DNA from: Scenedesmus sp. ARA3
Lineage: Eukaryota; Chlorophyta; Chlorophyceae; Sphaeropleales; Scenedesmaceae
Length of the DNA stretch: 64,000 nt
NCBI GenBank assembly: GCA_004335835.1
Contig: RWJK01001982.1
Location: 108,653-172,652, forward strand
Direction of reading: 5' to 3'
Shown here: positions 1,390 to 57,413 of the stretch, one piece after another
How positions within the stretch are numbered: the first letter of the stretch is position 1
Layout: the number at the start of each line of letters is the position of its first letter
Made by a program: the position numbers and the translations under genes
The notes under the pieces: model-generated
Told to the model about the DNA's origin: nothing
The model's input: only the letters and a program-made list of their open reading frames with translations
Database searches by the model: none

Positions 1390-3877
1390 TGTGATGGTGA
1401 GGACTGGTTCTCCATCTCCACCATCCCTCAGCTGGACTACACCTCTATCCACGTGTACGAGAGGCATATGGAGCTGCTTCCAAAGCCGTCAGGTGCGTGA
1501 TGCCTGTACTCGAGTAGTATTTTGTTTACACCACATATGCCAGGCCCCGAGGCGCGTGATGCTAGCTGCACACAGTGTGCTGAGGTCTAGCACCTGCTTT
1601 ACTGCCACTTTCCAGCCTTGTTCTGTCAGACACCTGTGTGAGTATATATAGAGAGAGGATAGTTACATGTGGGTCCGGGCACCATCTTAGATGGTATGAG
1701 CCACAACAGGTTGAACACAAGGTCAGAGACCAGAAAGGAGAGTGAGCACCGTAGAACATATATGGAGCTGCTTCCAAGGCCCTTAGGTGCGTGCTGCCAG
1801 CACTGTTGCTGCAGTACGCCGTGTGCTGCAATATAAAGGAGTGCTGAAGGCTGGCAGCTGGTTCACTGCCAGATGCAGGCCCACTGTTCTAGTCAAAAAA
1901 TCACCCGTGGTTCCACCCTAGTTTACGTGTAACACACAATGCAAGGCATGCATCAACGTGCACATCCCTGCTGTTGCTGCTGCTGCTGTTGCTGTTGCTG
2001 GCATCTGCAGGCTCTCAGGGCGACTGGCCCAACTGGATCCACTGCGGATGGTCCTGCTACGTCAACTGGTTCAAAAACTACGTGCAGGTATGCAGCGCAT
2101 CATACAAATACAGTGTTTGTGTGATTATGTGTTGCCCAAAGCCTTGTTCTTCCTGGCCAGCAGAGAGCACCAGGCATGTTTGCAGCTGCAGTGGCACCAT
2201 GATGCTGCACTCGGCTGTGGACGCCTTTGCCAACATTGGCTGCAGCGCACCTGCGCTTCCCACCCACCCTTAAGCAATTGGTATCGTGAAGCCGCACTGC
2301 TCTCACGCACCTGCCTGCCCACCTGGCTGCGTTGCATGTGCTCTGCCTGCAGCTGAACACCTGTCTGGCAGACAGCATGCTCAAGAGGCTGCTCATCACA
2401 CACAAATCGCGCCTGCCAAAACGTCTGCCTGCCTGCCTGCCTGCATTCTGTCTTCGCCTGCCTGCAGCTGCACACCTACCTCTCAGAGACCGTGCTGAAC
2501 AAGCCGATGATCATAGAGGAGTTGATACTAACAATTGCCTGCCTGCCAAATGCCTGTGTACTGTCCTAACTGCAGCTGCACACCTACCTGTCTGAGACCG
2601 TGCTGAACAAGCCGATGATCATAGAGGAGTTTGGGCTCACCTGGTTCAAGAAGACGCTGGACCAGCAGCGCGTGCTGTTCAAGGTGAGAGGGTTGAGATT
2701 TGCATAAGTTCTGGAGTGTGGTGTGGCACTTGAAGCCAGCTGCATATGCTGTGGGGGTTCGGGAAGGCGCTGGACCAGCAGCGTGTGCAGTTCAAGGTGA
2801 GGCACGATGTGATACGTAAAGCTTGCAGCTGCATACCGAGCAGCAACACCGCAAGCATGCAGTCACGTCTGAGTTGGTGCAAGCAGTGGGCGCAGCTGGG
2901 TTGGACCTGGAGGGACCTGGAGGGAAATGCCACTTCGGTAGTTCACTGTGTGCTGAGATGCCACTGTGGTGCAGCCGACAATCCACTGATGCTGTCGTGT
3001 ACTTCATGCAGCAACGCTGCTGCTGCACGATGTATTACTCTTGGGCACTGCTGTTCCTCAAGAGTGCTTGGATGCATTGCTCTTCGTAGCACTCCTGAGG
3101 CACAGCAGCGCCCCAGATTATACGCTATTTGCTATTGCATATGCATGTCGGCTCTTACGCTGCAGAAACAGCTGCTTATCACCGCGCGTCCAGTGACTGA
3201 AGGCAATGCTGCTGGCAATGATGCCAAAAATGCTGCGTGCTGCAGTAACTAATGCCAGATTGTGTGGAGCAGCGCGCATGTAAGATGGTGTGCAATGGAT
3301 GTTCATTTTTGCTCAACTTTGCGCCACCCTGCACAACACTGCAGGTCACATTCGACATGCTGGAGGAGTCAGCACAGTCCGGAGGCGCCCTGGCCGGAGC
3401 CATGTTCTGGAATGCAGCACACAACAACACCATTGATAGCGACGGCTACAACGTACGCATCGACAGGCCAGCATACATGCAAGCTGACTCAGCCATCAGA
3501 GGCCCTCCCAGGCCGCTGCCGGCTACTGTTGTTACATTGGAACAGGCGCGTGCAATGACAGTTGACAACCGCACCAGGCCGGTGCCGCCGGATGTTATTT
3601 TCTCGCCAGCTGGCGCACCGCCAGCGCTGCGTGCACAGATGAATGTAAAGCTGCCTGCTGTAAAACAGCCACGTCCCACAGCAAAGCCTGCAGCAGCAGC
3701 GGTGCCAGCAGCGGCAGTGCCAGCAGGAACAGTACCCGGAGCAGCAGTGCCAGCGGCAGCAGCAGTACCAGCAGCAGCAATGCCGGCAGCAGCAGCGCCT
3801 GCTGCCAAGCCAGCAGCTGCAGCGGCATCTGCTGCCTCTGCTGCTGCAGTCCCAGCTGCTGCTGTGCCGCCAGCACA

Positions 3878-3923
<46 letters not shown>

Positions 3924-6672: not shown

Positions 6673-6703
<31 letters not shown>

Positions 6704-7074: not shown

Positions 7075-7116
<42 letters not shown>

Positions 7117-11296: not shown

Positions 11297-12827
11297 AGGT
11301 TGCTGCCTTTGACGAGGCTGCCGTTGAAGCGCTGCTGGCTGAGGGCTCCGGCGTGGTACGGCACAGGGGCAAGCTCGCCAGCGCAGTGAAGAACGCGCAG
11401 TGAGTATTGGTGCAGCATGTTTGTCATGAAAAGCACACAGCTCGCATATGCGCCCAATGCCCAAGTGGACTTCTGGCTATTCGGTACTAGGTTGTGCCAG
11501 GTCAGCACTCATGCTTTGTCATGGCAGCTGCGCGCCCTGGCCAGCGCAGTAAGGAACGCGCAGTGAGGGCAACACTCCAGTGTTGATCACACTGGTGAAC
11601 AGCTGTACCCAGCTACCCGGCTTTACCCAATGCAGTATCGGAAGAGCGTTTGATGCGGTGCTCTTGTTGCCAGTTCAGGATTCATGCTTCGATACGGCAG
11701 CAGCGCGCCTGGCAGCAGATACTTTGTACATATAGGTGGGCTGCGGGGCAGCGGTTGGTGAATTCAAGCCAGTCCTGTTCGCAGCGCTGCTTACAGCAGC
11801 CTGAGCATTTCATTGGGAAAAACCCTGACTAATGCATATTACAATAATGTGCTGTGTTGCTGCACTGGCATGCTGCAGGGTGGTGCTGGAGCTGCAGCGC
11901 GAGCATGGCAGCCTTGCCAGCTTTGTGTGGGGCTTTGTGCCCAACAGCCAGCCCATGGTGGGCAGCTGGAGCAGCATGGACCAAGTGCCCACCACGTGAG
12001 TGACTCACTTGCATGATGGTAGCGGACATCCACTATGCTGTGTAAGTGTATGTCACTGTTGTAGTGTAAGCTGCTGTTGTACATGCTTCATGGCGTGCAT
12101 CACGTGTGATGTTGAAGCAACATGGGCCAAGTCCCCACCACGTGAGTGCCGTGGACACCCACTTGTATCTGTATGCTGTGCTGTTGCTGTTGTAATGGGA
12201 GAATTTTCATTTTACATGTTGTATGTTGCGGTTGTACATTGTATGCTGCATGGTGGGCAGCTGGAGCAGCATGGACCAGGTTACCACCTCGTGAGTGCCG
12301 GCATGCTTGTTGCAACACTTGCGCTGTATGCCATGCCACGTGATGGTGTCATGTGCAATATATGGTATCTGGGCATGCTCTGCAAGGTAATGCTTTTGAA
12401 AACCATACCGTTGCAAGACTGAGCAACGGCCCTGCCTTGTTCATATAATATTGCAAGTAGGCAAATCTCAGCCATTCCAACACGTCATGTCTGCTGCGCA
12501 CGGTGCCTGGCTTATGTTTTCAGAACGCCGGAATCTGCAGCGCTCAGCAAGGCGCTGAAGCAGGCAGGCATGGCCTTTGTGGGTCCCACCACCTGCTACT
12601 CTTTCATGCAGGCGGCCGGCCTGGTCAACGACCACACCGTTGACTGCCACTGCTACCAGCCGATCATCGACAGCTACAGCAAGCTGCAGCAGCAGCAGGA
12701 TGAGCAGCAGCAGCAGCAGCAGGGTGAGCAACGTGACGGCGCCAGTGCAGCAGCAGATGGTCCTCCTCGTAGAGGCGCAGCGGCCAAGAAGCAGGGCAGC
12801 GGCAGCCGCCGCAGCAGCAGAGCGTAG
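9793..12827 (+). CDS. TAG: DNA-3-methyladenine glycosylase I (TAG family)
   Basis: Model: join(9793..10193, 10273..10323, 10598..10676, 10885..10962, 11299..11399, 11879..11995, 12524..12827), phase-consistent. The enzyme excises 3-methyladenine from alkylated DNA to start base-excision repair in the nucleus or organelles. RCKW and YHDEEWG supply the first Cys and His, and VNDHTVDCHCY the second His and Cys, matching the four zinc ligands of E. coli Tag. FELLVLEGAQAGLSW holds the catalytic Glu and the AGLSW pocket. Downstream are FDPAK, VVRHRGK, SFVWGFVP, ALSKALKQAG and CYSFMQAAGL, all in family order. The N-terminus carries basic KRSRPARSTKPNKR and an Ala-rich spacer; the C-terminus is Gln-rich with a basic tail. 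The start is uncertain: ATG at 9793, 9832, 9841 or 9949 are all in frame, and 9949 gives a compact N-terminus with a possible nuclear signal. Confidence 0.95.
11247..11298 (+). repeat. (CTG)17 run forming the 3' end of a TAG intron
   Basis: Uninterrupted CTG triplets end in CTGCAG, the acceptor for the exon at 11299. This is one of the longest pure runs in the window and is likely length-polymorphic. Confidence 0.95.
11535..11570 (+). repeat. Intronic copy of TAG exon 5 end plus donor
   Basis: GCCAGCGCAGTAAGGAACGC followed by GCAGTGAGG repeats the true end of exon 5 (11376-11406) about 163 bp downstream, keeping CA|GTGAG. Confidence 0.85.
12119..12150 (+). repeat. Intronic copy 1 of TAG exon 6 end plus donor
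   Basis: ATGGGCCAAGTCCCCACCAC followed by GTGAGTG copies the exon 6 end (11975-12002), with an intact GT at 12142. Confidence 0.85.
12249..12300 (+). repeat. Intronic copy 2 of TAG exon 6 end plus donor
   Basis: CATGGTGGGCAGCTGGAGCA continues into a GGACCAGGTTACCACCTCGTG version of the exon 6 end (11954-12002), with the donor retained near 12291. Spacing from copy 1 is about 150 bp. Confidence 0.88.
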
Positions 12828-13756: not shown

Positions 13757-13872
13757 GGCATCAGCGCTGGGAGGCAGTAGCCGCACTCTGTCTGGTGCTG
13801 CATCATCAATGGCCATGCCCTCCTTCAGCAGCCGCCGCTGCTGCTGCTACTGCTGCTGCTGCTGCTGCGGCA
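12828..13872. other. Intergenic between convergent TAG and SNF8
   Basis: TGTAA, the usual green-algal polyadenylation signal, occurs at 12965 and 13001 downstream of TAG. A stretch at 13127-13215 resembles 1091-1165 next to the retroelement. A 147-codon minus-strand frame at 13225-13668 has no recognisable motif and I do not call it. Confidence 0.5.
13758..13832 (-). repeat. Copy of the SNF8 terminal exon downstream of the gene
   Basis: CATCAGCGCTGGGA, then GCAGTAGCCGCACTCTGTCT and ATGGCCATGCCCTCCTTCAG mirror 13889-13960, the C-terminal codons of SNF8, about 131 bp away. It lies in the 3' flank, so it is not an intronic copy. Confidence 0.85.
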
Positions 13873-14339
13873 TCAGCGCTGGGGCATCAGCGCTGGGAAC
13901 CAGTACAGCCGTATCTTGTCTGGCGCGCCATCATCGATCATGGCCATGCCCTCCTTCAGCAGCTCAGCCAGCACTCGCTCGCAGCGCTGACTGGCCCAGC
14001 CAGCTGTGGATGCCAGCTGGCCTGCAGGCATCAACAATCCCACGCAGCAAGTATTTCGTTAGCCTTCGTTCGTCCTATCCTAGTCGGATACATCATTTCC
14101 AAACCACTCCACACAAACGCTGCCATGCAAATGCAACAGCAAGCAAGGTTGTGAGTTGCAGAGCCAGCACCCGCTTGCAGCGCTGACTGGACCAGCATGC
14201 TACAACGTCAGCTGGTCTGCAGGGATCAGGGGTCAGGCACACAACAAGTAGGACTGTGAATATGACAGTGACGTAGCAGCTGGACCAACCTGCCGTAGAT
14301 GCAAGCTGGCCTGCAGAGCCATTAGGGTCAGGAGCCCGC

Positions 14340-14388
<49 letters not shown>

Positions 14389-16016
14389 CGCACCTGCGCT
14401 GATGTAGCCTGCTGCCTGCGCCAGCTCCATGACCTTGTTCTTGTCTGTGTTGAACTCGCCTGGCACGGAGCGGATGTACGTGCCACGCCCGATTGTGACA
14501 ATGTCAATGCCTCCACCCAGCACCTGGCGCAACAGGAACAGCGGTTACAGCAGAGACAGCAGCAGCAGCGGTGTTCGTGATGATGAGCAGCAGCACCATG
14601 CGTGTGACACAACACCTTTGACACGCCAATGCTGCCACTCAAGCCCACAGCCCCCGCCCGACTCCAACCAAAAAAACACACCAGCTCGCTTCATACACAG
14701 ATGAAGTAAAACTATTCAGGCCACGATGCCCACCCACCTTAAGCTTGCGCACCGCGCGCACGATGTCATCCTCGCTCACTGGGCCGCTCCTGCTGCCGCG
14801 CCGCCGCTCCACCGCGGCCCGCAGCGCCCCCAGCTCCATGAGCCCGCCATTCAGCTGCCTGCTGGCCAGGCAGGCCTCCACCAGCTGCACACCCAGCTCA
14901 TAATAGAAGTCACCAAAGCCCAGCAGCTCAGCCCACACGCCCTGCGGCGCTCAACAGACACGTTTCCCGCAGTTGAAAGGCAATCGGCAGTGCAGCTGCG
15001 GAGGTTTGTCAGCAGCTGAAATGCGCAACATCCTCCAGACGCCCTGCAGGGACCAGCCTGCAGCGTCTGCAGCATTATCAGCCCAGCCAGTTGATTGGCG
15101 GCTGGCCAGGCAGGCCTCCACCAGCTGCACCCCCAGCTAATAATAGAAGTCGCCAAACCCCAGCAGCTCCGCCCACATGCCCTGCCGGGGTTCGTCCGCC
15201 AAAGCATGACACAGCTCATGCTTTGGTGGACGTGGTTCCTAAAAGACGGTGGTTTGCTAGACATGGGTGATGGAGCTGATCACACAGCTCAAAGCTACTG
15301 CTTTTGTTGTGCCTCAACAGAAACCTCCATCCCACCGCACACTACCGCCCATACACAATTTCACTCCACACCTTGTTTGAGGCCAGCGGGTCCACGCCAA
15401 TGTTGGCGCACATGGTGTGGAACTGCGCCCTGAATACAGGGTCTGCGCGTATGTCTGCCTTGTGCTGCAGCGCAAACGCCTCCAGGCTGGACTTGAAGGT
15501 GGCCAGCTGCGCCTTCATCTGCTGCAGGCTGGCGCGCCGCACCTCCTCACCCGCGCTGCGGTACTGCTCCTGCGTGTGCAGATGGATTGTTTGCAGACAT
15601 GCAGATTCGGCCAGCAAGTCAGCGGGTGGGAGAGTGCGGGTGAGCGTTGAAGTGGTCAGGGTTTTTTCGTGGTGGTTGGGTGGGGTTGCAGGCTGTTGCA
15701 GACAGTCAGGCAGGATCGCATGTGGGGGCTGAAGGCACACAGCAGTGTGCGCACATGCCGCAAGGAAGCAGTTGTGTGCGATGGCATTGGTGCACCAGTA
15801 TGTATCGGCACTGGGCATGTAAAGGCAGCCCAGCAGTTGTGCGTGCTGCTGATGTCATTGGCATGTGCAGCAGCTTGCACCCTCTCCTCATCCGCAGCTT
15901 GCTGCAAACATGCAACCGTGCACAGCGCCTTGGTTACACACTGCAGCTGCAGAGCAGCAGCTTACCCTCGTCGCCTCATCCCTCTGGATGCCAGCGATAC
16001 CAGGGCGCCTGCGCAT
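13873..16016 (-). CDS. SNF8: ESCRT-II subunit SNF8 / VPS22
   Basis: Model: complement(join(13873..14021, 14394..14523, 14738..14941, 15372..15569, 15966..16016)), 243 residues, close to the usual 250. It is part of the ESCRT-II complex with VPS25 and VPS36, sorting ubiquitinated cargo into multivesicular endosomes. The N-terminus MRRRPGIAGIQRDEATR is the conserved start. ADIRADPVFRAQFHTMC, IGVDPLASNK and ELLGFGDFYYELGVQLVEAC form the helical head and first winged helix. SEDDIVRAVRKLK, TYIRSVPGEFN and VMELAQAAGYIS build the second winged helix. The end, LLKEGMAMIDDG then RLYWFPAL, is the standard C-terminus. The introns contain degraded duplicates of exons 3 and 5. It is divergently arranged with the SANBR-like gene. 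Confidence 0.96.
14161..14226 (-). repeat. Intronic copy of the 5' half of SNF8 exon 5
   Basis: GCAGCGCTGACTGGACCAGC and GTCAGCTGGTCTGCAGG copy 13965-14030, including the CTGCAG acceptor, about 197 bp upstream in transcription. A still more diverged copy is at 14276-14320. Confidence 0.82.
14338..14387 (-). repeat. Triplet run just after a SNF8 splice donor
   Basis: On the transcribed strand the donor GTGCGGG is followed at once by CAG triplets with one CAA interruption, about 16 units. Confidence 0.9.
15098..15187 (-). pseudogene. Degenerate duplicate of SNF8 exon 3 with an in-frame stop
   Basis: A minus-strand CGGCAG acceptor is followed by codons for GMWAELLGFGDFYY, then TAG where exon 3 has GAG, then LGVQLVEACLASRQ. 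It lies in the intron 240 bp upstream of the functional exon (14738-14941). Inclusion would truncate SNF8, so it is either skipped or acts as a poison exon. Confidence 0.92.
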
Positions 16017-27440: not shown

Positions 27441-28440
27441 CACCCTGACCAGCTACTCCCTCCTCTCCCTCTAGGTTGGGAGAGGGGCAGTAACCCACTG
27501 CCCCCTTGATGGCTGTGAAATTTTATCTTTATTTGCTGGCCGCGTGTGTCCGTGAGATGGCATCGGCAAGTTCGACTGGCATTCCGACACCGGTAACGCT
27601 GTAAATTCACAGGCACTACAGCTGGCTGCCCCGCCAGCCTTCGGAAGGGAGCTGCTGCCAGAGCTCAGGATGCCAGGCACAGCGCTTACCAAGAGACATA
27701 AATACTAAATCGTTTGATGTATTTGTGCTATGATCGGACGTTGAGTGGTCGCCAGTCGCCAGGTTTCATGGTTCATCTGCGACGGTTTCACATGCCAAGG
27801 TTTACCGATGAAGTGAGCTGGCAGCTTCGGTTCCAGATCATCCACCCAAGAACTCAGACTGCTTGGATTTTTCCGATCTGTGCCGCTTACATCATCTTCC
27901 GATGTCTGGCGACGCAACCGTATTCGATGTGCTGCCCTACTGCTGCCAGCAGCTGGGCCTGCAGGGCCTGGCCTTTCACAGTTTTGTTGTTGGTTAGTTC
28001 GGCGCAGCATTCACGTGCACCAGTGCTTCACATGACCTAGGGCCCACATGGCACAGCAGCAGGTTGTGCTTGGCCCAATTCTTTCATGCATGCAGTGCCG
28101 TACACTGCATTGTAGTTTGTGTTTGTTGCTGCACCCTCGCAATTTGTTTGGGTTGCCTGCAGCGTCGATTTCGTGGGTGCTGCCAGCATGGCTGGCTTGC
28201 CGCTATGCAGCTCTTACATGGTTACCTTCTTTGCTGCACGGGACCGAGCCTTGGAAGCTGCAGCCTAGCCTTGAGAGCCGCAACTGTGCTGCCGGCTGCT
28301 GGCCAGTGGTTGCACCCGTTGGTGCCCAGATACAAAGACAGAAGGAGGTACAGCAAGCACCAGCAGTGCTATAGCTGGTAGCTACCAGCGCAGTACACTG
28401 TGTGGCTCTTGCCCAGTGTATGGCACCATTGCTGCAGCTG
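27441..28440 (+). repeat. Unit 1 of a three-unit tandem segmental duplication (internally deleted)
   Basis: The 5' flank (GAGATGGCATC, ACAGGCACT, CAGCTGGCTGCC, ATGCC...GGCACAGC, GTTCATCTGCGAC, TGCCAAGGTT) matches the regions before 28841 and 32535. The 3' flank from about 28020 (CACATGACCTA, GTGCATGCAGTGC-type stretches, GAGAGCCGCAACTG, GAAGGAGGTACA) matches that after 31513. Almost the whole CDS is missing in between. Confidence 0.8.
27902..27997 (+). pseudogene. 5' relic of the ankyrin-like gene family
   Basis: MSGDATVFDVLPYCC and QLGLQGLA match the first 24 residues or so of the genes at 28841 and 32535. Then the sequence jumps to the 3' flank (FHSFVVG, stop). A deletion of about 3 kb explains it. 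Confidence 0.85.
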
Positions 28441-31513: not shown

Positions 31514-32534
31514 CTGCCAGCAGCGTTGAGGAGTTGTGTTGCAGCGGAGAGTCTCGTTAGCTGGTGCCTTGCAGTTAGCTGTGTCCGTCAACGGGCACTG
31601 TTGTGGCCCTTGCCACTTTGCAGCAGCATTTGCATCTATCAGTACGTCACATGACCTACTGTTGCAACCTACGTGGAACAGCAGGAGGTTCTGGTTGGCG
31701 CGGTCAACGCATGCGTGCATGCAGTGCTGTGCACTGCATCGTAGTCTGTGTTTGTGCTGCACCCCCGGGGGGTGCTGGGGCCCAGCGTCCATGTTTGGTG
31801 CCTGCAGCGTTGATTGTAGATCATGCGTGCCGTTAACATGAATGGCATGCCTCCATGCAGCTCCTATGTGATTTCCCCCTCTAGATGCTTGTTGTTGTCC
31901 ACGCTGCACAGCGCCAAGCCTTGCAAATGGCAGCTGAGCTGTGAGAGCCGCAACTGCGCGGGTGGCTGTTAGTTGCATCCTTGGATGCCCAGATGCAAAA
32001 GCGTCCTTCGAGATCCTGGATTTGTAAAATTTAGTTGTTTTACAGAAACTGAAGGAGGTACAACAAGCACCAGCAGTGTTACTAGCAAAGTATACTGTGC
32101 AAGTCTGGCATGGCACCACCGCTGCAGCCGCTGCCAAACTGAGGTAAACCATTAAGCCACATTGATCGGCTGCGATGGCTCGCTTTCTTTCGCTGGCTGC
32201 CAGTATGCATATGTGATGGCACTGGTATGTTCAGTTATATCATTCTAAAGGCATGCAGCTGGCCCTGACGGGAGCGACTGCCCGACCTTGCGATGCCTAG
32301 CAGGCACAAACATTATGGAACAAAAGAATTCCAGAACCAATTGAGTGCCGTGTGCTAAGATCGGACGTTGGGGGATGGATAGCCACCTGGTTTCATAGTT
32401 CGCCTGCCACCGTTTCACATGCCAAGGTTTTGACCGGAATAAGCGGCATGTGAGCTGGCAGGTGTGCTTCGAGATCACTCCACCCGAAAAATCAAACTGC
32501 TTTTTCCGGTCTATAAGGCATACCTCAACGCTCG
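31514..32534. other. Flanks between tandem units 2 and 3
   Basis: 31640-32120 is homologous to the 3' flank of unit 1 (28020-28430). 32125-32534 is homologous to the 5' flanks at 27441 and 28441. The unit boundary is near 32125. Confidence 0.7.
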
Positions 32535-35459
32535 ATGTCGTGCGACGCAGCAGTGTTCGATGTGCTGCCCTACTGCTGTCAGCAGCTGGGCCTGCAGGGC
32601 CTGGCCTGCCTGGCAGCCAGCAGCAGGCAGCTGCGGACCATCAGCCTTGGACTGCTACCCAAGGATGGCAGCATGCTGCTGGGTGCGCTGGAGGCAGCTG
32701 CTGCAGCAGCTCCAGAAGCAGCAGCAGCTACACCTCCCACACAAGCAGCAGCAGCCAGAACAAGGCAGCAGCACTTGCAGGCAGTCACCTGGCTGCTGAG
32801 CCATACACCCACAGCAGCAGCTGCAGCTGCAGGCGTGGCTGAGCGCGCACTGCAGATACCGGCTGTGCCGCTGCCCTGGGCGAAGCAGCTGCTAGCAGCT
32901 GGCATGACAGTGACCTACGCACAGCTGCTGCATGCAGCACACATCATGGTGGCAGGAGTGGAGGTGTGGGTGCAGGGGCAGCAGGAGCTGGGCTTGCAAA
33001 GCGATATCCCACCAGCTGCAGTGACCATCTGCTGCCCAAGCACCTGGCCATCGGTAGGTGGTCCTGCAGCCGCAGGAATTGCTCCTGCTGCTTCTGAGCC
33101 TGTATGCAGTAGTCGCTGCAGCAAACAACATGGTTGGTTGGCACAGCTGGTTGGCACAGCTGGATTTGTCTCACCAATGTGCTAGCAGCCTGGTAACCCG
33201 CACAAACGTCCAGCTACTGCACATGCTGAATTGCAAGGACTGATATGGCTTCTTGATCAGTGCTAGACAGCAGCAAAGCTGGGCTGTGAACTGTTTGCAA
33301 CATGGAAGGAAATTTGTATTCTGGCATGCGCAGTGCCATCAGCAGGAACAACAGCAACATGGGCCCTGCTGGTCACCACTTTGCGACTTGTTCTGTCTGC
33401 ATTCTCTTTCCATGTCGCATGTTATCTGTTCTGATGCTGCAGTGTCCCCCCGTTTTCCTGGCCAAGGTGCTGCAGCAGAACAGCACGCCCGACCTGCTGC
33501 AGCTGGCCATGAACTGCTGGAACTCAACAGCAGCAGAAGCAGCAGCGCACAGCCTGCCAACGCAGCTGGAGCCGCAGCTGCTGCGTAAGCTGCTCGTTAC
33601 GGCAGCCAAGCGCCAGCACGCAAGCGCGGCCATCCATATGCTTGGGTTGGAGGCAGTGCAGCAGCACATGGATGCAGCCACACTGGAGGTGCTGCTCAGC
33701 ATGCTGATTGCTGTCGGGACAGGCGGCGGGCTGGGACACATGCAACAGCTGTACCGTGTTCGGCATCTGCTGCGGCCAGCAGCAGAAGGCGTGGTCCTGC
33801 AGCTGCTGCATGAGCAGTGACGTGGTCCTGCAGCTGCTGCAAGCAGCTGTGCAGTACGACAAGCAGCAGTGTGCAGCGTTGCTGCTCGAGCTGCTTGCAG
33901 CACAGCAACTCAACAGTGACTTCATGGGGCAGCTGCTGCAGCAGGCTGTGCTGCATAACAGCCGCCAGTGCGCACATTTGCTGCTGGAGCTGCCTGCACC
34001 CCCACAGCTCAGCACTGAGAGTGTGCAGCAGTTGCTGCAGCACACGCTAGTCCCGAAGCGAGTACGTTTGTCGCCCCCTGGGAGCAATCTCCTGTGGTGT
34101 GTTCCGCGGCTCTGCAGTATGGCAGCAGCACAGCAGCTGAGCTGTGATGCAGTGTCACAGCTGCTGCATCATTCAGTGAGGCTTGGCTCGGGCAGCTGTG
34201 TGACGGCATTTCGCAGGTTGCCGGCAGCAGCGCAAATTGGCAGCAATGAAGTCGCGCAGCTGCTGCTTGCAGCTGTTGCACAAGGTGCGGAGTCCTGCAT
34301 AGCACCACTGTGCAGGCTTCAGGCAGCAAGGTTTATGAGCAGCAGCTCAATGACACAGGTGCTGCAAGCAGCTGTTCAGCAGAACAGCGATGCTTGTATT
34401 GAGTCTGTCATCAAGATGCACACGACAGCAGGTTGGTGCGAGCAGCTGACAGCAGACGCAGTGTCAGGCCTGCTGCTGGCAGCAGTGGAGCAGGGTGCTG
34501 TTGCTTGTGTTGAGGCCCTGTGGCAGCTGCCAGCCGCACAGCAGCTCAGCAGCCAGCAGCTGGTGGGGTTGCTGAAGACCTGTTTGCAGTCTCCGGGGCC
34601 CGGGGACCAAGACTGCACGTACCAGGTGTGCCGTACATTGTGCCGCATGCAGCAGGTGCAGCAGCTTGACAGCGACACAGTTGTGCAGCTGCTGCACACT
34701 GCTATTCAACAGCGCAGCCCTGATGGCATTGAGCCCTTGTGCACGCTGCCGGCAGCACAATCTATCAGCACAGCAGCTGTCGAGGAGCTGCTGCTGGCAG
34801 CTGTGCAGCGCTTGTTCTGTTCTGACAGCATCAGGCCCATCTGCAAGTTGCCGGGAGCTGCACGATTGTGCAGCACAGCTGCGGTGCAGCTGCTTCGATT
34901 GGCTGTAAAGCAGGGCAGTAGAGGCTGCACAGCCCAACTGTGCCAGCTGCTGGGGGCACGCAAGATGGACGGTGCTGCGGCGTTTGAGCTGCTGCAGGCA
35001 GCTGTGCAGAAGCGCAGCCCTGGATGTACAGCACAGCTGTGCCTACTGCCAGCAGCGCGGCAGCTGAGTACAGATGCAGTGCAGCAGCTGCTGCAGGCAG
35101 CTGTGCAGCAGGGCAGTGCGTGGTGTATGGAGCAGCTGTGCAAGCTGAAGGCAGCACGCAAGCTCAGCAGTGATGCAGTGCACCAGCTGTTGCAGGAGGC
35201 TGTGCAGCAGGACAGTACATGCTGCATGGAGCAGCTGTGCCGGCTGCCAGCAGTGAGAGGGCTCAGCACAGATGCAGTGCAGCAGCTTTTGCAGCAGTGC
35301 AGCGCTGAATGCTCAGCGCAGCTGCTGGCAAGCATCCCTGCTGAGCTGCCTGCTGCCTGCAGGTTGCACAGCTGCAAGTGTCAGCAGACAGCAGCAATGC
35401 CGAATGGACATAGTAGCTGCCAGCAGTGTCAAGGAGTTGCGTTGCAGCGGAAAGTCTAG
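32535..35459 (+). pseudogene. Ankyrin-like family copy 3, frameshifted
   Basis: Exon 1 is 32535..33053 (173 codons, phase 0) and exon 2 begins at 33443 (CPPVFLAKVLQQNSTPD aligns with the intact copy). A 31-bp tandem duplication at 33791-33852 (GTGGTCCTGCAGCTGCTGCA occurs at 33791 and 33822) throws the frame: the first frame stops at 33818-33820, and the repeats continue in another frame to 35459. The repeat region is otherwise open and well preserved (LSTDAVQQLLQAAV, LPAAR units), which suggests a recent lesion. The last about 30 codons are again out of register with the intact copy, after AEL. It is either a young pseudogene or an allele; the two parts could also be separate proteins. Confidence 0.75.
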
Positions 35460-36082
35460 CTAGCGCGGTGCTTTGAAGTTGCATGCTGTGTCTTTTGTCG
35501 CTTTGTTCCAGCATCTTGCGCCTATCGCTATGTAGAATAATCCACAAATCGCATGATACAACAGCATGTGTACACATGTTATGCTGTGCCCACCTATGCA
35601 TGCTTGCAGTCCCGTCCATTGTGGATATAAGATGAGGGATCGGGCGTGCAAGAGTGTGCATAGTGCTCCATTGTGTGCACTCTTCTTTCTGGTCTCAAGC
35701 CATGTCTTCACCCTGTTGTGGCTCATACCTGCGGAACTTATGGGACACAAACGTTTCGCAAGTTTGGGTGGGGGCGAGGTTGTGCATCTATGATGGTGCC
35801 AGGACCCACATGTAACTATCCTCTCTCACGAAGATTGTGTTAGCTTGGTGCCAAGCAAGCAGCAGCAGCAGCTCCTGACAAGAGCTTGCCACATGCAGCT
35901 CAATTCCGCAGCCTACCATACAAAGTACCAGCTGCTACAGCAACAGTACCAACCCTGCAGCAGGTCAACAGCTGCGCCCCTAAAGTCGCGCAAACATTAT
36001 CAAATGTTGAAGTCCCACGAGGGTAGCGTTTGCCAATCACTCTTCTCTCCTAGCAGGCTGCCGTGACTGCTGGTGTATATAG
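35460..36082. other. Intergenic between ankyrin-like copy 3 and SGNH-2
   Basis: It contains dispersed repeat copy B (35687-35830) and otherwise no supported coding sequence. Confidence 0.6.
35687..35830 (+). repeat. Dispersed repeat copy B (possible LTR/primer-binding junction)
   Basis: CTTTCTGGTCTC, CCTGTTGTGGCTCATACC, then GGTGCCAGGACCCACATGTA and ACTATCCTCTCTC. It is the best-preserved copy, and it matches copy A at 1650-1740 along its length. Confidence 0.6.
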
Positions 36083-37943
36083 CTAGTCTGTGTAGGCAGC
36101 CACAGCCATGCCGTTGATCTTGAACTTGTGGCCACCAGTGGTGGTCTGGTTGAGCAGCGTCACTGACACCACACAGCGCGGGTGGGCGCTGACCTGCAGC
36201 CCCACATGCAGTCAGAAGGAGCAGGCGGCAATACAGATGCATCGTTGGTAGTGCCTGGAGACATTGATGCCTGCCTTGGGAAAAAATGGCTGTATGACCA
36301 TGTATGTTGTTGATGCAAACTGAGACGCTTGTGCATGATGCAGTACACACAAGCTCCGGTCCACAGTGCTGCGTGTGTGCTTGATGCTGCTCAGGTTTGT
36401 CAGTCTAGTGGATGTCGTCTGGCACACAGCAACGCAGCCTGTACACTTGCTGTGATGCAGCACAGATTAACCAACCTGTGTCTGCACTGTGTCCAGCTCA
36501 GCAGTCCTGTCTGTGTTCTCGCCATTGACCTCCAACGCATCACAGCTGCAGCCCTGCTCACACTGCACCCTCACAATGCCCATGCCATCAACTGTCCCCG
36601 AGCCATCCTCCGGCACATACGACTGCTGCTTCAAAAATAACATAATAAGTGACAGCTTGCCCTTGTGCTGCAGCTGCTCCCTGCTCAGGACGCTGCTGGT
36701 GTTGAATTCGAACACGATTCGAGCGCCCGGCGTAACAGATTTGTAACCAAACTTCCTGCAGCCTGGCGAGCGGCAGTCATGCCGCCCTTCCTCTACCCAA
36801 TCCCAGCCGTTGTTGCTAACAGCAAATGGCTGGAATGCCTCCCCTGCAGCACAGAAAGTGTCCACATTCAGCTGCTGTGCTGCTACTGGGCTCACTGCAC
36901 TTGGCAATGCAGAGCTTGCCCCCAGTGCAGCCGCCAGTGCTGTGCTGTGAAGGTCGTTTGATGACTCTATGTTCGGCCGCTGCGCAGATATCATCCTGCT
37001 GTGCTGCCTGCCCAAACCTGTGCTGAAAGGAAAGATCCTCCCGCCACCGCCGCCGCTGCTGCTGCTGCTGCTGCTGCTGCTGAATAGTCCCAGCAGCCCT
37101 CGCCGCCGTGTTGGCAACATGTCAAGGTAGCTGTGTGCATGGTGCCGGTAATGCTGCGCTGGCGCTGCTGCCACCCCATGCTGCTGCTGCTGTGCCTGTA
37201 GCAGCAGCGACTTCGTAACAAGGTGGCGTAGCGCCCAGGCCACAAACCCTGCGCCATAAACCCTGGCTCCTGCCAGCTTGGGGTGTATGTGGTCTTTGAA
37301 GAAATCATCTCGTGTCAGTCCCAGCAGCGGCAGCAGCAGCGCATCATCGAACATTGCATTGTAGAGTGCATCCCGCACACTCACCATAGGCACGTTGTAC
37401 CTGCATAATAACAGCAAGGGATTGTGCACACAATGCAGATGTAACGTACATCTGGAAGGCGCGGAAGTTCTGGGAAGCAGCATATACACAACGTGTTGCT
37501 GGACCCGCAGCGCTGCAGCATGCAAAATGTACCCGCGCTGGTCCAGGCTGGTAGCAAAGCAGCAGCAGCAGCTGCAGAGCCACATCATACCACCATCTGC
37601 ACCCTAACATGTCGCCGGTGCTGTGCCACTGTCCCTTCACACGCACCTCTTGGCTATCACTGCATGCATGTCCTCCCCTGTCTTCCAGTACGCCCCTGGC
37701 AGGCCTTTGTGTGTTATCTTAAAGGAAAAGCAGGCCATGCTGAGCAGTGCTGCCTGCGGCGCCTTGAGCATCACCTTACGCAGCAGCTGCTCATAGCCAG
37801 CAACCTGCAGGGCAGTCAGCGGATGTGATCTGTGAGCAAGCCTTGGCAGTTAGGTGTGGGTGCAATTGTTACACCATGGTGTGATGTTGCGTGGCTGCTG
37901 CTCATAGCCAGCCACCTGCAGGACAGCCATCGGACGGCTAGGG

Positions 37944-45604: not shown

Positions 45605-45642
45605 TAGATGGTGCCAGGACCCACATGTAAGTATCCTCTCTC
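45605..45642 (+). repeat. Dispersed repeat copy C
   Basis: GGTGCCAGGACCCACATGTA, then AGTATCCTCTCTC. The flanks differ from copies A and B; instead CACAGCTGTTCAGGCCTA/T is directly repeated on both sides (45589 and 45650), as if the element sits in a small duplication. Confidence 0.6.
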
Positions 45643-46196
45643 AAAGGCCTCACAGCTGTTCAGGCCTATGCCAGTTCTGTGGCGCCCAGTTATGATCTCA
45701 ATCAACGCGTTCAACAACGCTTCCAACAACAGTGCATGCAGCTGTTCTCAGCCTGCATCTAGGCATCCTCCGTCCCACAAAACACTGCACCACTCTAGTG
45801 CACGCCGCAGCCCGGCTGTGGCATGCACTAGACTTGCAGCTGACCAGAAGGTGCCAGTACCATTGCCACTCAGTTCATATCAGGCACGCAAGCATCTGCT
45901 ATCACAACTGCACCGTGCAGCCAGCCTGCAAGCTGTGACAACCCGCCAACAGCAGCCTGACACAGCAAGGCGTGACATCGCAGCATCAACAGCTGCGCAA
46001 TGCCGTGACATATTCGATTACTGGCCTGATCACGCAGCCCTGGTTCAAGCCTGTAGTCTTTGACTCGCAGCACTCAACTTGCCGCAAGGTAACAAATCCA
46101 GCTACAAGCGCCCAAACTCGCACCAGGAGGCAGCTGCTGCAGGAGCCTCTTCAGAAAACCCCAGTGCCAAGCAGCAGCGCCACTGCCCCCTCTCAA

Positions 46197-51667: not shown

Positions 51668-51709
<42 letters not shown>

Positions 51710-53142
51710 CAACTGCAGCACCACCTTTGCAAACTTTCATCTGCAAGAGCACCACCAATCCAGCATCAGCAGCAGGCAGCAGGGCATGCACCTCATCACC
51801 TTGCTTTCGTTTTGTTCTTTTGCTCTCAGGTGTTGATGTGGCTATGAACACGCACCTCAAGGCGGTCAAGCTCATGCCCAAGTGTTTTCTGCACTGCTGA
51901 CTCTGCTGCCGCGCTGTCCCCATTTGCCGCACCGCCTTGTTCTTTCGCCCCTTCAGTTGTGGATGTGGCCATGAACACACAGCTCAGGGCAGTCAAGCTC
52001 ATGCCCAAGTGCTTTCTACACTGCTGACTCTGCTGCCGCACTGTCCCCATTTGCCTCACTGCCTTCTTCTTTCGCCCCTTTAGGTGTGGATGTGGCCATG
52101 AACACGCACCTCAAGGCAGTCAAGCTTATGCCCAAGGGCCGCTCCCCGATCTCTGTGGACCACATGAGCGTGCGCGGCAGCAACATCCGCTACTACATCC
52201 TGCCAGACTCCCTGAACCTTGACACGCTGCTGGTCGATATCGATCAGCCGAAGCAGCGGCCGCTCAAGCCGCCGAGGACAGGTGTGGGCATCTGCTTTGG
52301 GTATTATGTGTGTGTTGAGCATTTTGTGTGCTTGATGTTTTACTGCTCATGCTGGACACGCTGCTGGTCGATATCGATCAGCTGAAGCAGCGGCCGCTGA
52401 AGCCGCCGAGGACAGGTGGGGCTGGATATATGTGTGGGTGTGTTGGGGTGTGTGCATGTGTATTGAGGTGTATGCTGCTGTGGTGTGCGCCCAGCGCCCG
52501 CGTGGCTGTGTGTGCAGGTTGGGTGCAGATGTGTCCTTGTGCGCACCTGCATCGGGTGTTATGTGTGTGTTTAGCACTTTGTGTGCTTGATGTTTTACTG
52601 ATTATGCTGGACACGCTGCTCGTCGATATTGATCAGCTGAAGCAGCGTCCGCTGAAGCCGCCGAGGACAGGTGGGGTTGGATATGTGTGGGTGTGTTGGG
52701 GTGTGTGCATGTGTCTGGACGTGTATGCTGCTTGTGGTGTGTGCTCAGCGCCTGCGTGGCTGTGTGTGCAGGTTGGGTGCAGATGTGTCCTTGTCCCAAG
52801 CGTGCGGTTGCTTTTGGTGTCCTGCAAAAGCGCCGGCATTGTTTCTACATGCATTCCGACCCTGCTTTCAGTGGCAGGATTCATTGCAGATGACGACACC
52901 CATGTTACCTTTGCAGATCAAACCCTGGGCTGATAATCGCCTTGCGACGCTGCCGATATGGAATCTGCCTGCCTAGCCAGCTGCTTGATTGATCGATTGT
53001 GTAGTACCTGGTCTCAGTGTTGTTTCGTCCCGCCCACTGCTGCTGCTGCTGCTGCTGCTGTGTTGTTGTTGTGCTTGCAGCTGCTGGCAGGGCCACCCGC
53101 GGGCGTGGGCGTGGCAGGGGACGCGGCAGGGGTAGGGGCTGA
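51164..53142 (+). CDS. SNRPD1: Small nuclear ribonucleoprotein SmD1
   Basis: Model: join(51164..51180, 51331..51407, 52084..52281, 53081..53142), 117 residues, the usual length. It is a core Sm-ring subunit of U1, U2, U4 and U5 snRNPs. Sm1 is [19 protein letters not shown] then MNTHLKAV, and Sm2 is [19 protein letters not shown]. The end of exon 3 ([16 protein letters not shown]) leads into a short exon coding [20 protein letters not shown], the expected RG tail, for which the acceptor at 53080 is the only one giving the RG frame. Two introns hold tandem copies of exon 3's own edges. It is notable that a spliceosome gene carries the densest decoy splice sites. Confidence 0.97.
51669..51709 (+). 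repeat. CAG-type run in SmD1 intron 2
   Basis: About thirteen triplets with no coding role on the SmD1 strand. Confidence 0.9.
51830..52010 (+). repeat. Two intronic copies of SmD1 exon 3 start with acceptors
   Basis: Copies at 51830-51881 (acceptor CTCTCAG) and 51957-52010 (acceptor CCCTTCAG) repeat GTGGATGTGGCCATGAACAC and the downstream codons up to ATGCCCAAG. The real exon is at 52084. Spacing is 127 bp each, and the spacer (CACTGCTGACTCTGCTGCCG, CTGTCCCCATTTGCC) is repeated too. Confidence 0.95.
52351..52420 (+). repeat. Intronic copy 1 of SmD1 exon 3 end plus donor
   Basis: GACACGCTGCTGGTCGATAT and the following CGATCAGCTGAAGCAGCGGC run to CCGAGGACAG|GTGGGG, nearly identical to 52219-52288. 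The donor is kept at 52416. Confidence 0.95.
52607..52860 (+). repeat. Intronic copy 2 of SmD1 exon 3 end, part of a 256-bp tandem duplication
   Basis: The exon end (GATCAGCTGAAGCAGCGTCC, CCGAGGACAG|GTGGGG) and the following TGTG-rich stretch repeat 52351-52600 with a 256-bp offset. Confidence 0.93.
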
Positions 53143-54442
53143 GGCTCAGGCTCCTACTGGGGTAGTGCTGCAGCCGTGCGCAGCAAACAGACAGCGCGCA
53201 GCATCAAGCTTCGATGGCTGGAGTGTGTTGGGGGTTGCTTCTGCTGGGTGCAGGGCGTTGTGAGGCTGGTGGCAGTTCCAAAGCAGCCGTTTTGGCAAGC
53301 TCAGGGTGCATTGCACTGCTGCGCGTTGTTGTTCACGCTGCTACCGGCTGCAGTTGCGGAATGGTCTGGCGCACTACATGTGGATGAACATCAGGCATTA
53401 CAGATGCAACATGCTGTGCAGGCGTTAGTGTGTGCTGAGTTGTGTGTGAGTGTTTGAACACCAAAAGGTGCACACTTTTGTGCAGCTGCTGACAAGGCCA
53501 CGCTGCGGCTCTTGCACTGTCAGTGCTGCATGACGAAGAGCAATATGCGGCTGGAAGACCACTGCTCTCTGCATGCGTGGCTGTTGCGGTGCTGCTGTTG
53601 ACGCTGTCTACACGGGTGTGCCAAAGTATGGCGCGTGTTGGATTGTGCTTGCACGGCTGCTATGCACAGGCCAGTGGCAGACTTGACTTGTGAACACTGC
53701 CTGTCAACTGCTATGTTGCGGCCTGCGTGAGCATTTTGATGGGGTTGGTGAAAGCCAGCAGTTCAAGTCTTTCAAATGGTGCACTGTCAGGGTGTACCCT
53801 ACACAGTTCTTTGGACTGTTTTGTAACACGGTGTGAGTCACGTGAATATGTTGAAGATTCCTTGCCATACCAAGTGCTGATGAAAATGACTTATTGTCCG
53901 ATTAATCGCTTACTGAACGGCATATATGTTACAAGGGTGCTCACAGCCTGCGCAGCTGCGGGCACCAAGCATACGAGGTGCACAGCTGCAAACAATCAAC
54001 CATCACCAACCCTCTGCAGAATCCCAGCATCTAGACTGATTAGGATTGTGATGACTTTGGCCGCAGCTGTCAGTGATCAATGCACATGACAATGTAAAAC
54101 CAGACACAAATCAAGAATGGCAAGAGTGAAGGGCTGCAGGCCATGCACTGCAGCAGCAGCAAGCTGTAGCTCAGCTAAGCCGCCTGAACTGCAGCAGCAA
54201 CTGTCTGCACCACCAACACAATGCAGTAGCAGTGGCTTGATTAGACATCATAACCCACTCACAGCTGGCACATGTGCGCTCAGTGTGTGGCAGAAGTGCT
54301 ACGTGGAACGCTGCTGCCGCCACTGCTGCTGCTGCTGCTGCTGCTGTTGAGCCCGTCGTCCGCAAGCCTGCCGTGCAAACCTGAGCTGGGGTTGTCAGTG
54401 GCCAAGCAGTCATGCCGCTGCTGCTGCCGCCGCTGCTGCGGC
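53143..54442. other. Intergenic between SmD1 and ClpR1
   Basis: Convergent gene ends. It includes the most diverged copy of the ClpR1 exon end at 54358-54415. No other supported feature. Confidence 0.55.
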
Positions 54443-54510
54443 CTACTGCTCTGCGGCGTGCCTTGTGAACCTGAACTTGGTCTTGTTGGACGCAAAGTAG
54501 CCCTGCCGCT
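54358..54510 (-). repeat. Two diverged copies of the ClpR1 terminal codons beyond the stop
   Basis: At 54443-54510 the minus strand reads QGYFASNKTKFRFTRHAAEQ stop, echoing the real C-terminus QGFFSSDKPKFRFTRQAGEQ at about 54567-54629. A weaker copy lies at 54358-54415. Spacing is about 120 and 90 bp, with CAG/CGG-rich spacers. Confidence 0.9.
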
Positions 54511-54566
54511 GCTGCCGCCGCTGCTGCTGCTGCTGCTGCTGCTGCTGCCGCTGCTGCTGCTGCCGC

Positions 54567-55300
54567 CTACTGCTCCCCCGCCTGCCTTGTAAACCTGAAT
54601 TTGGGCTTGTCGGATGAAAAGAAGCCCTGCTGCTGCGCCATGGCGTCCTTTGCGATCTTGCGGAAGCGGTTCATCTTGTAGCCCGGCACCAGCTTGTCAA
54701 CCAGGCCCTCCTCGTAGGCCTGCTTCACGCTGAAGTAGCGCTTGCTGCAGAGGGCAACACATTAACAAACAAGCAGGGTGGGCAGCGGCGAGTGTAAGTG
54801 GTGTGTGCAAGAGATGCGTTCAGTGTCCTTAAATATGCCTGCTGCACTTTGAAGTAGCGCTTGCTGCAGCACAACAGACAAACAAACAGATGCACACAGT
54901 TGATGTAACAGGGCAAGTGGCAGTTGTGGCTGGGCACCAGCTTGTCCGCCAAGCCTTCTTTGTAGGCCTGCTTCACACTGAAGTAGCGCTTGCTGCATGT
55001 GCAAAGAACAGCCAACAAAGACTGAGTGACACATCAGTGGCAAGTGGCAGATGTGGCCGGGCACGAGCTTGTCAACCAAGCCTTCTTTGTAGGCCTGCTT
55101 CACACCGAAGTAGCGCTTGCTGCAGCACACACAAACAGAAGCAGTACCAAGAGGTTCATAACTACAGGTTTCCCACTGCGCCGCTCACCGTGAGAGGTAC
55201 TCCTTCTGGCAGGTGGCCAGGTCCTTGCCGGTGCTGCGTGCCAGGATGGCTGCATAGTACTTGGTGGCGTACTCCAGCTCATTGGCCTGGTGACACAAGC

Positions 55301-55340
<40 letters not shown>

Positions 55341-57413
55341 GAGAGGTTTGCACAACCACATGATGGCTGCGTAGTACTTGGTAGCATACTCCAGCTCGTT
55401 GGCCTAGCAGCTGCAGCAGCAGCAGCAGCAGGTGTGCACGTGGGATTCTGCACATGTACGCACGGGCCAATGGTGGGCTGCACGCCGCCTGCAGCTGATT
55501 TATAACATTAGCCTTCTTGCAAACCATACCTTGACATTGACGTCGGCAGCTGATTCATGAGGGCAAAAACATGTTCCAGCAGCATGGCACAGATTTATAT
55601 TAAACAGATCATGCCAAGAACTGGGCCCTCTGCGCCTGCAGAGGCTGCATGGTGAAGGAAGCAGCATGAACACCGCAAAGCCGCCGCACCTGCAGCTGCG
55701 CGTCCACTGCCTGCCCAAACACGCGGTTCATCACAGGCGGCGCCGTGCTGATCTTGGCGTGAGGGAAGGTGTAGCGGTGGCCCTTCTGGCCTGCTGCCAG
55801 CAGAACTGCGGCCTGGTTCTGAGCCTTCCAGGTGACACCTGCAGCGCGATGATAAGCCAGCCACAGCAGCACAGCACAGCACAGCACGTGAGCACGAATG
55901 TGACACCTGCATCCCGCACAGCAAGCACGTGAGCGCACATACCTAGGCAAGCACCGGATACACTGGCCAGGCCGCACGTCCTGCAGTCCTGGCTTGCAAG
56001 CACACAACCTCACATAACATAATATAGTGGTTTGGGCGACACGCCCACAAACCTGCGCACCAGCCGCCCACCTGCTGTACAGCAATGCAGCAGAAGCAAC
56101 GAACGACCGACACGCGAGAAGCCGCTTTTGCTCACCTGTGTACAGCGGGGCGCGCATGAAGCCCAGCGCTGCCAAGATGGCAACAAAAACAGTCAACAAG
56201 CAACACCTCACATCATATCGAAGGTGCAGCACACAGCAAGGAAACACCACACCCCACCCACCTGTGTACAGCGGAACGCGCGTGAAGCCCAGCGCCGCCC
56301 AGATGGCACAGCACACATCACCCTCAGCAGCCAGCACACACTAAATGCGCACAAAGAACCTCCAAAAAAGAAGAATCAAGTAGTGCGCCCACCTGTGTAC
56401 AGCGGGGCGCGCGTGAAGCCCAGTGCCGCCCAGATGGCGTAGAACTCGTTGTCTGCTGACACTGCCTGGCCCTGCTCGTTGATGCAGCCCGTGGAGTTGA
56501 GGTACACGTAAATGGGCTTGGTGCGGTTCTTGTCATCGAAATCAAGGTAGTAGCACTGCGCAACCACCAGCTCAGTCACCGAGGGCAGGAACTGCGTGTT
56601 ACATGTAATGTTGGGTGAAAGGCAGCAGCCAGGCAAAGCAGCAGAGTGTCAGCTGTGTACATGTGCCGGCAAGAGTCTCTGAAGGTAGTAGCACTGCGCC
56701 ACCACCAGCTCAGTCGCCGAGGGCAGGAACTGCGCAATGTATGTTACGACACAGCAGCCAGCAGCAGCAGCAGCAGCGTTAGCTATGACAATGTGCAAAT
56801 GTCTGAACGTGAGTGTGTCAGGTAGTAGCACTTCATATAAGCATTGCGCACTGCAAGGAAGGGGTGCCAGGCCCAAGCACAACAGGCTGGAGCAACGCAC
56901 TGGCAGGGGTCTGCATCCTGCATGCCTGCATGCTTGTTGCTGACCTGGCGCGACACCCATGCAAACTCCGTGTGCAGCAGCACCACTGCCATCTGCTGCA
57001 AATGCTGCAGCTGCTGCTGCTGCTGTGTAGGACCAACACTGCAGCTTGCCAGTCCATGCAAACACAAGATCTCACCGGCATGCTGATGTAGATCACGCGC
57101 TGCTGCAGCAGCAGCGACGGCAGGTCAGGCGGGTTGCCAAACCGCTCCGCCTCTGGCAAGAAGATAGGCCTGCCCTCTGGGTAGCTCTGGTAGTCACCAT
57201 ACGCTGCACGAGCACCTGAGTAGCTGCGGCCTCTGCCTGCCATTGTTGCTGCTGCCGCGCCGCCAGGGCCGCCTGCTGCTGCTGCTGCTGCCGGCATGCT
57301 GTAGCTGCTGCTGCTGCTCTGCGTGGCTGCGCGCGCTGCAAAGCCGAGGCCTGCCGGGTTTGAGGGGTCGAAGCGCTCGCCGCGCATGTAGTGCTTGCTG
57401 GACAGCGTGGCCT

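What the first reader, a model, noticed from the sequence alone, without database searches (positions are those of the whole stretch)
1461..57000. Introns built from tandem copies of neighbouring exon edges with their splice sites
In seven of the modelled genes, introns (and two 3' flanks) carry one to three diverged copies of the adjacent exon boundary: 30-90 bp of coding edge, the GT or AG, and nearby intron. Spacing is usually about 105-130 bp, sometimes larger (up to about 300 bp). Copies occur on donor and acceptor sides, keep functional-looking GT/AG, and differ by point changes, so they are not an assembly echo. By my hand count, 19 of 54 acceptors are also followed by GT, as expected if duplication of AGGT-bearing segments creates or moves introns. 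I know of tandem duplication as a proposed origin for single introns, but not of a genome where it marks most genes.
Basis: partly seen in the sequence, partly recalled or inferred. Interest (0 to 1): 0.88.

Follow-up and report, generated by a model that had tools for sequence, protein, structure and literature searches.

The report
Tandem duplications straddling exon edges
In this green-algal genome, short stretches of about 127 bases that straddle the border between an exon and an intron are often copied in tandem into the neighbouring intron, which seems to lengthen introns without changing the protein; the process is of a known kind, but its frequency and preferred size are unusual.

Summary
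In 264 kb (the window plus 22 other stretches of the same genome) local direct repeats are abundant (157 pairs against 1 in a simulated control) and rarely inverted (150 direct, 4 inverted). Of 602 predicted splice edges, 48 have one to five diverged copies of the exon edge on the intron side, the nearest a median of 127 bp away. Copies diverge almost neutrally, while the working exon changes mostly at third codon positions. Copy offsets are not multiples of three, so the copies look spliced out. Best reading: recurrent tandem duplication with a preferred unit near 127 bp; units crossing a coding edge survive because splicing hides the copy. This lengthens existing introns. Intron creation from duplicated AGGT is not supported: AG|GT is at most slightly enriched (70 of 307 against 57.7), and at most 8 of 180 introns show the required register. 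Two things stay open. Coding edges carry more duplications than uniform placement plus detection bias predicts. Exon-derived parts stay more alike than intron-derived parts, although a high indel rate could explain that.

The parts
52084..52281 (+). working exon 3 of an SmD1 gene (LSM domain)
   Evidence: gene model; Pfam LSM 63 bits for the hand-joined protein
51957..52012 (+). copy 1 of the start of SmD1 exon 3, inside the upstream intron; spacer like the working acceptor's
   Evidence: offset -127, 0.89 identical over 56 bp
51830..51882 (+). copy 2 (outermost) of the start of SmD1 exon 3; all four differences synonymous; intron flank not alike
   Evidence: offset -254, 0.92 over 53 bp
52352..52415 (+). 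copy of the end of SmD1 exon 3 with GT, downstream in the intron
   Evidence: offset +134, 0.95 over 64 bp
52607..52670 (+). second copy of the end of SmD1 exon 3 with GT (part of a 255-bp tandem duplication)
   Evidence: offset +389, 0.91 over 64 bp
2468..2523 (+). copy of the start of exon 2576-2683 of the first gene (GH5 mannanase-like by eye; Pfam gave nothing for the fragment)
   Evidence: offset -108, 0.96 over 56 bp
2353..2398 (+). older copy of the same exon start
   Evidence: offset -223, 0.70 over 46 bp
2756..2796 (+). copy of the end of exon 2576-2683 with GTGAG; intron flank only weakly alike
   Evidence: offset +113, 0.88 over 41 bp
1760..1786 (+). copy of an exon end at 1466-1492 (edge seen by eye, missed by the gene finder)
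   Evidence: 87% over 45 bp including intron
12113..12141 (+). copy of the exon end at 11995 of a 3-methyladenine glycosylase I gene
   Evidence: offset +146, 0.86 over 29 bp
12249..12290 (+). second copy of the exon end at 11995
   Evidence: offset +295, 0.90 over 42 bp
11537..11562 (+). short copy of the exon end at 11399 of the same gene
   Evidence: offset +163, 0.88 over 26 bp
14161..14216 (-). copy of the exon start at 14021 of an EAP30 (SNF8/VPS22-like) gene
   Evidence: offset -195, 0.79 over 56 bp
15056..15185 (-). copy of the exon start at 14941 of the EAP30 gene (125 bp of exon)
   Evidence: 83%
13775..13837 (-). copy of the exon end at 13901 of the EAP30 gene
   Evidence: offset +126, 0.79 over 63 bp
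56682..56729 (-). copy of the exon start at 56591 of a Clp protease subunit gene
   Evidence: offset -138, 0.96 over 48 bp
56262..56307 (-). copy of the exon end at 56393 of the Clp gene, with GTGGGT; intron flank unrelated
   Evidence: offset +131, 0.93 over 46 bp
56136..56181 (-). second copy of the exon end at 56393, same inner boundary
   Evidence: offset +257, 0.91 over 46 bp
55359..55403 (-). copy of the exon start at 55286 of the Clp gene
   Evidence: offset -117, 0.89 over 45 bp
54834..54863 (-). copy 1 of the exon start at 54744 of the Clp gene
   Evidence: offset -119, 0.87 over 30 bp
54924..54992 (-). copy 2 of the exon start at 54744
   Evidence: offset -248, 0.86 over 69 bp
55052..55119 (-). 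copy 3 of the exon start at 54744
   Evidence: offset -375, 0.87 over 68 bp
54471..54512 (-). copy of the last coding edge of the Clp gene in its 3' flank
   Evidence: offset +124, 0.83 over 42 bp
37894..37934 (-). copy of an acceptor and exon start at 37804 (GDSL-like gene, name by eye)
   Evidence: 88% over 41 bp

Best explanation
Recurrent direct tandem duplication of short DNA segments, with a preferred unit of roughly 100-150 bp. When a unit lies across a coding edge (splice donor, splice acceptor or the end of the last coding exon), the extra copy falls into intron or flank, splicing to the right site hides it, and it survives. Units wholly inside exons would add about 40 residues or shift the frame, and are mostly lost. 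Arrays then grow by further duplication of the same unit. The copies are dead exon edges that decay almost neutrally, and introns grow by about one unit per event. Shown here: the duplications, their genome-wide frequency, size preference, orientation, position and near-neutral decay. Inferred: that the copies are spliced out, that survivorship sets their position, and the molecular origin (staggered breaks filled in, or polymerase slippage).
For: Direct 150, inverted 4 pairs. 157 pairs against 1 simulated. Nearest offset median 127. Exon part median 51 bp; breakpoints fit uniform placement if the intron part need only be 6-20 bp (P 0.19-0.52, 24 donor and 35 acceptor edges). Copy offsets modulo 3 are 31/22/30, whereas 6 of 7 repeats lying within one exon are multiples of three. 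Changes unique to a copy: 48/46/80 by codon position, 66 silent to 104 replacing, 3 nonsense (5.3 expected); changes of the working exon or shared: 9/6/32 (24 arrays). Similarity includes the junction in 82 of 90 cases, as a tandem unit must. Within arrays, exon-derived and spacer parts differ by similar substitution levels (0.140 and 0.148), though gap-friendly alignment flatters the spacers. Copies also occur at the ends of last coding exons, where no splicing is involved (L010:2116-2422, L016:90-317). Relatives' proteins align once to each working Clp edge (P0002 and P0033).
Against: Uniform duplication plus detection bias predicts that 53-64% of edge-or-noncoding clusters lie at edges; 55 of 65 to 60 of 65 do. 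Exon-derived parts are more alike than intron-derived parts even between two intronic copies (0.83 against 0.62, random 0.51; 23 of 24 arrays). 30 of 90 similarities stop just past the splice consensus, and 15 of 59 well-preserved copies have no detectable similarity in the intron flank. If acceptor units must carry 40-60 bp of intron, the exon parts are longer than expected. Silent changes in copies are somewhat above neutral (39% against 29%).
Confidence: 0.68

Rival explanations
1. Exon-anchored sequence exchange: old tandem duplicates whose exon-derived parts are kept alike with the working exon by gene conversion, while intron parts drift away. It would add to, not replace, the duplication process.
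For: Exon-part and intron-part identity are uncorrelated (Spearman 0.06, 74 pairs). Exon parts >=0.95 occur with intron flanks near random, for example window 52415, 2468 and 56729. Two Clp copies share both exon boundaries but not their introns. Edge excess beyond detection bias.
Against: With an indel:substitution ratio of about 0.5 the simulated intron identity equals the observed mean (0.64 and 0.63), and at ratio 0.2 it is 0.73; at any ratio at most 1 of 51 pairs is individually lower than expected. Several of the striking pairs have weak but significant local similarity in the intron. Conversion was not seen directly.
Confidence: 0.22
2. Intron birth by tandem duplication of an AGGT-bearing exon segment.
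For: AG|GT acceptors 70 of 307 against 57.7 expected. A few introns pass the register test (at most 8 of 180).
Against: AG|GT is not clearly enriched among copy-bearing edges (8 of 27; 11 of 21). Copies bring their own stretch of intron in about half of the cases (31 of 59 clearly) and sit at offsets other than the intron length. Some passing introns lie in simple or coding repeats.
Confidence: 0.07
3. The copies are functional: decoy or recursive splice sites, or alternative exon starts.
For: AG/GT kept in 75 of 83 copies (partly ascertained); slight excess of silent changes.
Against: Near-neutral codon pattern, offsets not in frame; the inner ends listed rarely show a donor; the aligned relatives' Clp proteins carry one copy. 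Acceptors with copies start with GT in only 8 of 27 cases.
Confidence: 0.05
4. Assembly artefact (false duplication from haplotypes or read errors).
For: One array holds a run of 50 N, so assembly was hard there (L015:6333-6382).
Against: Copies differ by 5-15%, working and dead copies show different codon patterns, arrays have up to five copies, and periods differ between loci.
Confidence: 0.03

Closest known systems
Tandem duplication crossing an intron-exon boundary in the potato RdRp gene (Ma et al. 2016, PMC4974935; results section read)
   Same: A unit holding the 3' end of an intron and the 5' part of an exon is duplicated in tandem; acceptor signals come from the parental intron.
   Different: There, part of the upstream copy stays exonic and a new intron arises, in one gene. 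Here the copies seem wholly intronic, occur at about 8% of splice edges, have a preferred unit near 127 bp, and affect donors as well.
Tandem genomic duplication model of intron gain (Rogers 1989 as reviewed in PMC3443670; passages seen)
   Same: Tandem duplication inside genes with splice-like signals.
   Different: The AGGT register and intron birth are not seen beyond a handful of doubtful cases.
Internal repeats from staggered breaks in new introns of Daphnia (PMC4202315; passages seen)
   Same: Direct repeats inside introns, interpreted as repair of staggered breaks that lengthens introns.
   Different: There, repeats shared with an exon are 4-12 bp; here the exon part is a median of 51 bp, in arrays of up to five copies.
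Introners (PMC9860276; two passages seen)
   Same: Found in many green algae; change introns genome-wide.
   Different: No shared sequence family: three spacers searched genome-wide hit only their own locus.

Membership tests
Tandem genomic duplication intron gain (AGGT model) | duplicated exonic segment with AGGT supplies both splice sites | tested here: not met
   AG|GT 8 of 27 copy-bearing acceptors against 70 of 307 of all
Tandem genomic duplication intron gain (AGGT model) | intron length equals the unit, intron ends resemble the opposite exon edges | tested here: inconclusive
   At most 8 of 180 confident introns above 500 random comparisons, several in other repeats. The gene finder turned many copies into false exons, so only 5 of those 180 introns carried a scored copy.
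Tandem genomic duplication intron gain (AGGT model) | intron absent from relatives | not testable with these tools
   no relative's DNA within reach
Tandem duplication across a coding edge | direct orientation, adjacent or at a fixed short offset | tested here: met
   150 direct, 4 inverted; 37 of 48 nearest copies at 100-150 bp
Tandem duplication across a coding edge | unit contains the exon-intron junction | tested here: met
   82 of 90 similarities reach at least 3 bases past the junction
Tandem duplication across a coding edge | intron part of the unit duplicated with the exon part | tested here: inconclusive
   31 of 59 copies clearly, 13 weakly, 15 not
Introner family | near-identical intron sequence at many loci | tested here: not met
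   3 of 3 spacers searched genome-wide hit only their own locus; the similarities between loci listed are mostly short CAG/CTG repeats, except the dispersed repeat at 1651-1744
Insertion with target-site duplication | direct repeats flanking unrelated inserted DNA | tested here: inconclusive
   Clear at one noncoding locus, L022:1237-1555 (46-bp perfect repeat around a 227-bp piece of a dispersed repeat); at exon edges spacers are mostly local

The most novel reading that the evidence does not exclude
Working exon edges and their dead copies in the neighbouring intron evolve in concert: exon-limited exchange, by DNA conversion or even by an RNA-derived template, keeps tens of bases at exon edges alike with intronic copies while the introns drift. 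The introns would then hold a reservoir of exon-edge variants able to feed silent and replacing changes back into genes.
Probability: 0.18. Interest if true: 0.8.

Novelty: new variant of a known kind. Interest (0 to 1): 0.52.

Why it matters
If the frequency holds genome-wide (about 8% of sampled splice edges), this alga offers a dense natural record of short tandem duplication, with enough events to measure unit size, breakpoints, decay and tolerance by the spliceosome. It would show a steady route of intron lengthening, and let one ask why spliceosomes pick the right one of several near-identical sites. The preferred unit of about 127 bp points to a specific lesion or repair geometry that could be tested.

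Tried and rejected
A first gene finder collapsed into tiny exons and was replaced by a stricter one. That one still calls many copies exons, so tests on whole introns are weak (5 of 180 confident introns with copies; those five have median length 385 against 219, P 0.03). A first reading that copies are under coding selection (third-position excess in copy against working exon, 128/110/312, 91 pairs) fell when changes were assigned to lineages. A reading that breakpoints centre on the junction fell against uniform breakpoints. A reading that only the exon edge is copied was weakened by simulation of indel decay. Spacers as mobile elements: no matches elsewhere for three spacers. Edge excess as a pure detection bias: simulated bias only 1.3-1.4-fold. 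Rfam found nothing in the window. Literature searches for duplicated splice sites or exon-edge copies listed no report of such a genome, within an open-access library only.

Full report
What the window is. The window is a stretch of an unnamed 87.3-Mb genome in 1,567 contigs. Splice sites are CAG|GTGAG and CTGCAG|. A Clp protease protein joined by hand from the window's exons is 94-97% identical to three database proteins (one of them over 80% of its length), and 88% to one whose source label reads Chrzof1 (Chromochloris zofingiensis, my reading of the label) and to one of Chlamydomonas incerta. So it is a chlorophycean green alga. Pfam supports Sm (LSM), Clp protease, protein kinase, EAP30 and 3-methyladenine glycosylase genes; the GH5-like and GDSL-like names are by eye, and Pfam found nothing in the two fragments sent.

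The copies exist. Self-comparison finds them at the coordinates given. To see whether they are special to the window I took 22 further stretches, 200.4 kb in all. Over 264.4 kb there are 157 direct pairs with offsets of 50-450 bp against 1 in an order-3 Markov simulation, and 150 direct against 4 inverted pairs at a score cut-off. The offsets peak at 110-139 bp, with weaker humps near two and three times that.

Position. A home-made gene finder trained on these sequences gave 602 splice edges of confident exons. Leaving out the 99-bp coding repeats at 27-36 kb in the numerator, 48 edges carry one to five copies on the intron side, 83 copies in all: 27 acceptors and 21 donors. Of 73 duplication clusters, 55 span an edge against 28.5 +/- 3.6 for random placement, 8 lie in or partly in exons, and 10 touch no confident exon against 31.7 expected; at least two of those ten look like edges by eye (1466 and 37783). 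Exon thresholds of 2-8 and a second low-complexity filter give 51-60 against 24-34. Among clusters with a pair of at least 88% identity, 24-29 of 34-37 lie at edges against 13-18 expected. A simulation of decay and BLAST detection gives edges only a 1.3- to 1.4-fold advantage, so 53-64% of edge-or-noncoding clusters should be at edges; 85-92% are. The excess is therefore not explained by survivorship and detection alone as I modelled them. Two cautions: exons are predicted, and copies themselves are sometimes called exons.

Anatomy. Nearest copies lie 127 bp away (median; 37 of 48 within 100-150). The exon part is 51 bp (median). Similarity passes the junction by at least three bases in 82 of 90 cases. 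Breakpoints inside exons fit a uniform draw if the intron part need only be 6-20 bp; if 40-60 bp of intron are required the observed exon parts are on the long side. Copies also occur at the ends of last coding exons (L010:2116-2422, L016:90-317), so splicing is not needed for their making.

Decay. Copy against working exon differ at 128, 110 and 312 first, second and third positions (91 pairs). In 24 arrays with at least two copies, changes unique to one copy fall 48/46/80, with 66 silent, 104 replacing and 3 nonsense (neutral expectation 29% silent, 5.3 nonsense), while changes of the working exon or shared by all copies fall 9/6/32. Copies thus behave as dead sequence, with a mild silent excess that I cannot explain. 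Copy offsets modulo three are 31/22/30, while 6 of 7 repeats inside single exons are multiples of three.

The intron part. Intron flanks of copies range from 93% identical to unrelated, and this does not track exon-part identity (Spearman 0.06, 74 pairs). Between two intronic copies, exon-derived parts are 0.83 identical and intron-derived parts 0.62 (random 0.51; 23 of 24 arrays). By local alignment 31 of 59 well-preserved copies share their flank, 13 weakly, 15 not; the outermost copy is the usual exception. Similarity drops as a step at the junction between working and copied edge, and as a slope between copies. Either the exon parts exchange sequence, or introns decay mainly by indels: spacers show 8.5 gap openings per 100 bp against 1.8 in exon parts, and a simulated indel:substitution ratio of about 0.5 reproduces the observed mean (0.64 and 0.63), with no more than 1 of 51 pairs individually off. 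I therefore keep conversion as a rival and not as the main reading.

Not intron birth. AG|GT is 70 of 307 acceptors against 57.7 by base frequencies, and not clearly higher at edges with copies. The register test passes in at most 8 of 180 introns, several of them in other repeats. The published case nearest to this is a potato gene in which a tandem duplication across an intron-exon boundary did create an intron (PMC4974935, results section read); the same paper mentions an 83-bp tandem duplication inside an intron that changed nothing, which is closer to what I see.

Possible origin. One noncoding locus shows a 46-bp perfect direct repeat around a 227-bp piece of a dispersed repeat (L022:1237-1555), the footprint expected of a staggered break filled in with captured DNA. 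Repair of paired nicks or staggered breaks in plants is known to give tandem duplications of this size range; that is from memory, not from a paper read here. The unit preference near 127 bp stays unexplained.

Noticed in passing
window 27600-35500: Two related tandem genes with arrays of 99-bp (33-residue) coding repeats, in frame; unrelated to the exon-edge copies and left out of the copy counts.
   Followed up: partly
window 1651-1744, 35678-35827, 45606-45643: A short dispersed repeat, also in L014, L020 and L024; one copy lies inside the spacer of the first gene's duplicated edge.
   Followed up: partly
window 454-927, minus strand: Predicted protein resembles a retrotransposon reverse transcriptase (recognised by eye).
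   Followed up: no
L022:1237-1555: 46-bp perfect direct repeat flanking a 227-bp piece of a dispersed repeat found at eight places in the genome, itself included (lower bound); two other copies continue beyond the piece on the right side.
   Followed up: partly
L015:6333-6382: Run of 50 N inside a tandem array, so at least one array is imperfectly assembled.
   Followed up: no
L021:9179-9561 (minus strand): What looks like a whole micro-exon of about 39 bp with both splice sites, duplicated.
   Followed up: no
window 54309-54636: Last coding edge of the Clp gene repeated in its 3' flank with period near 124 bp.
   Followed up: partly
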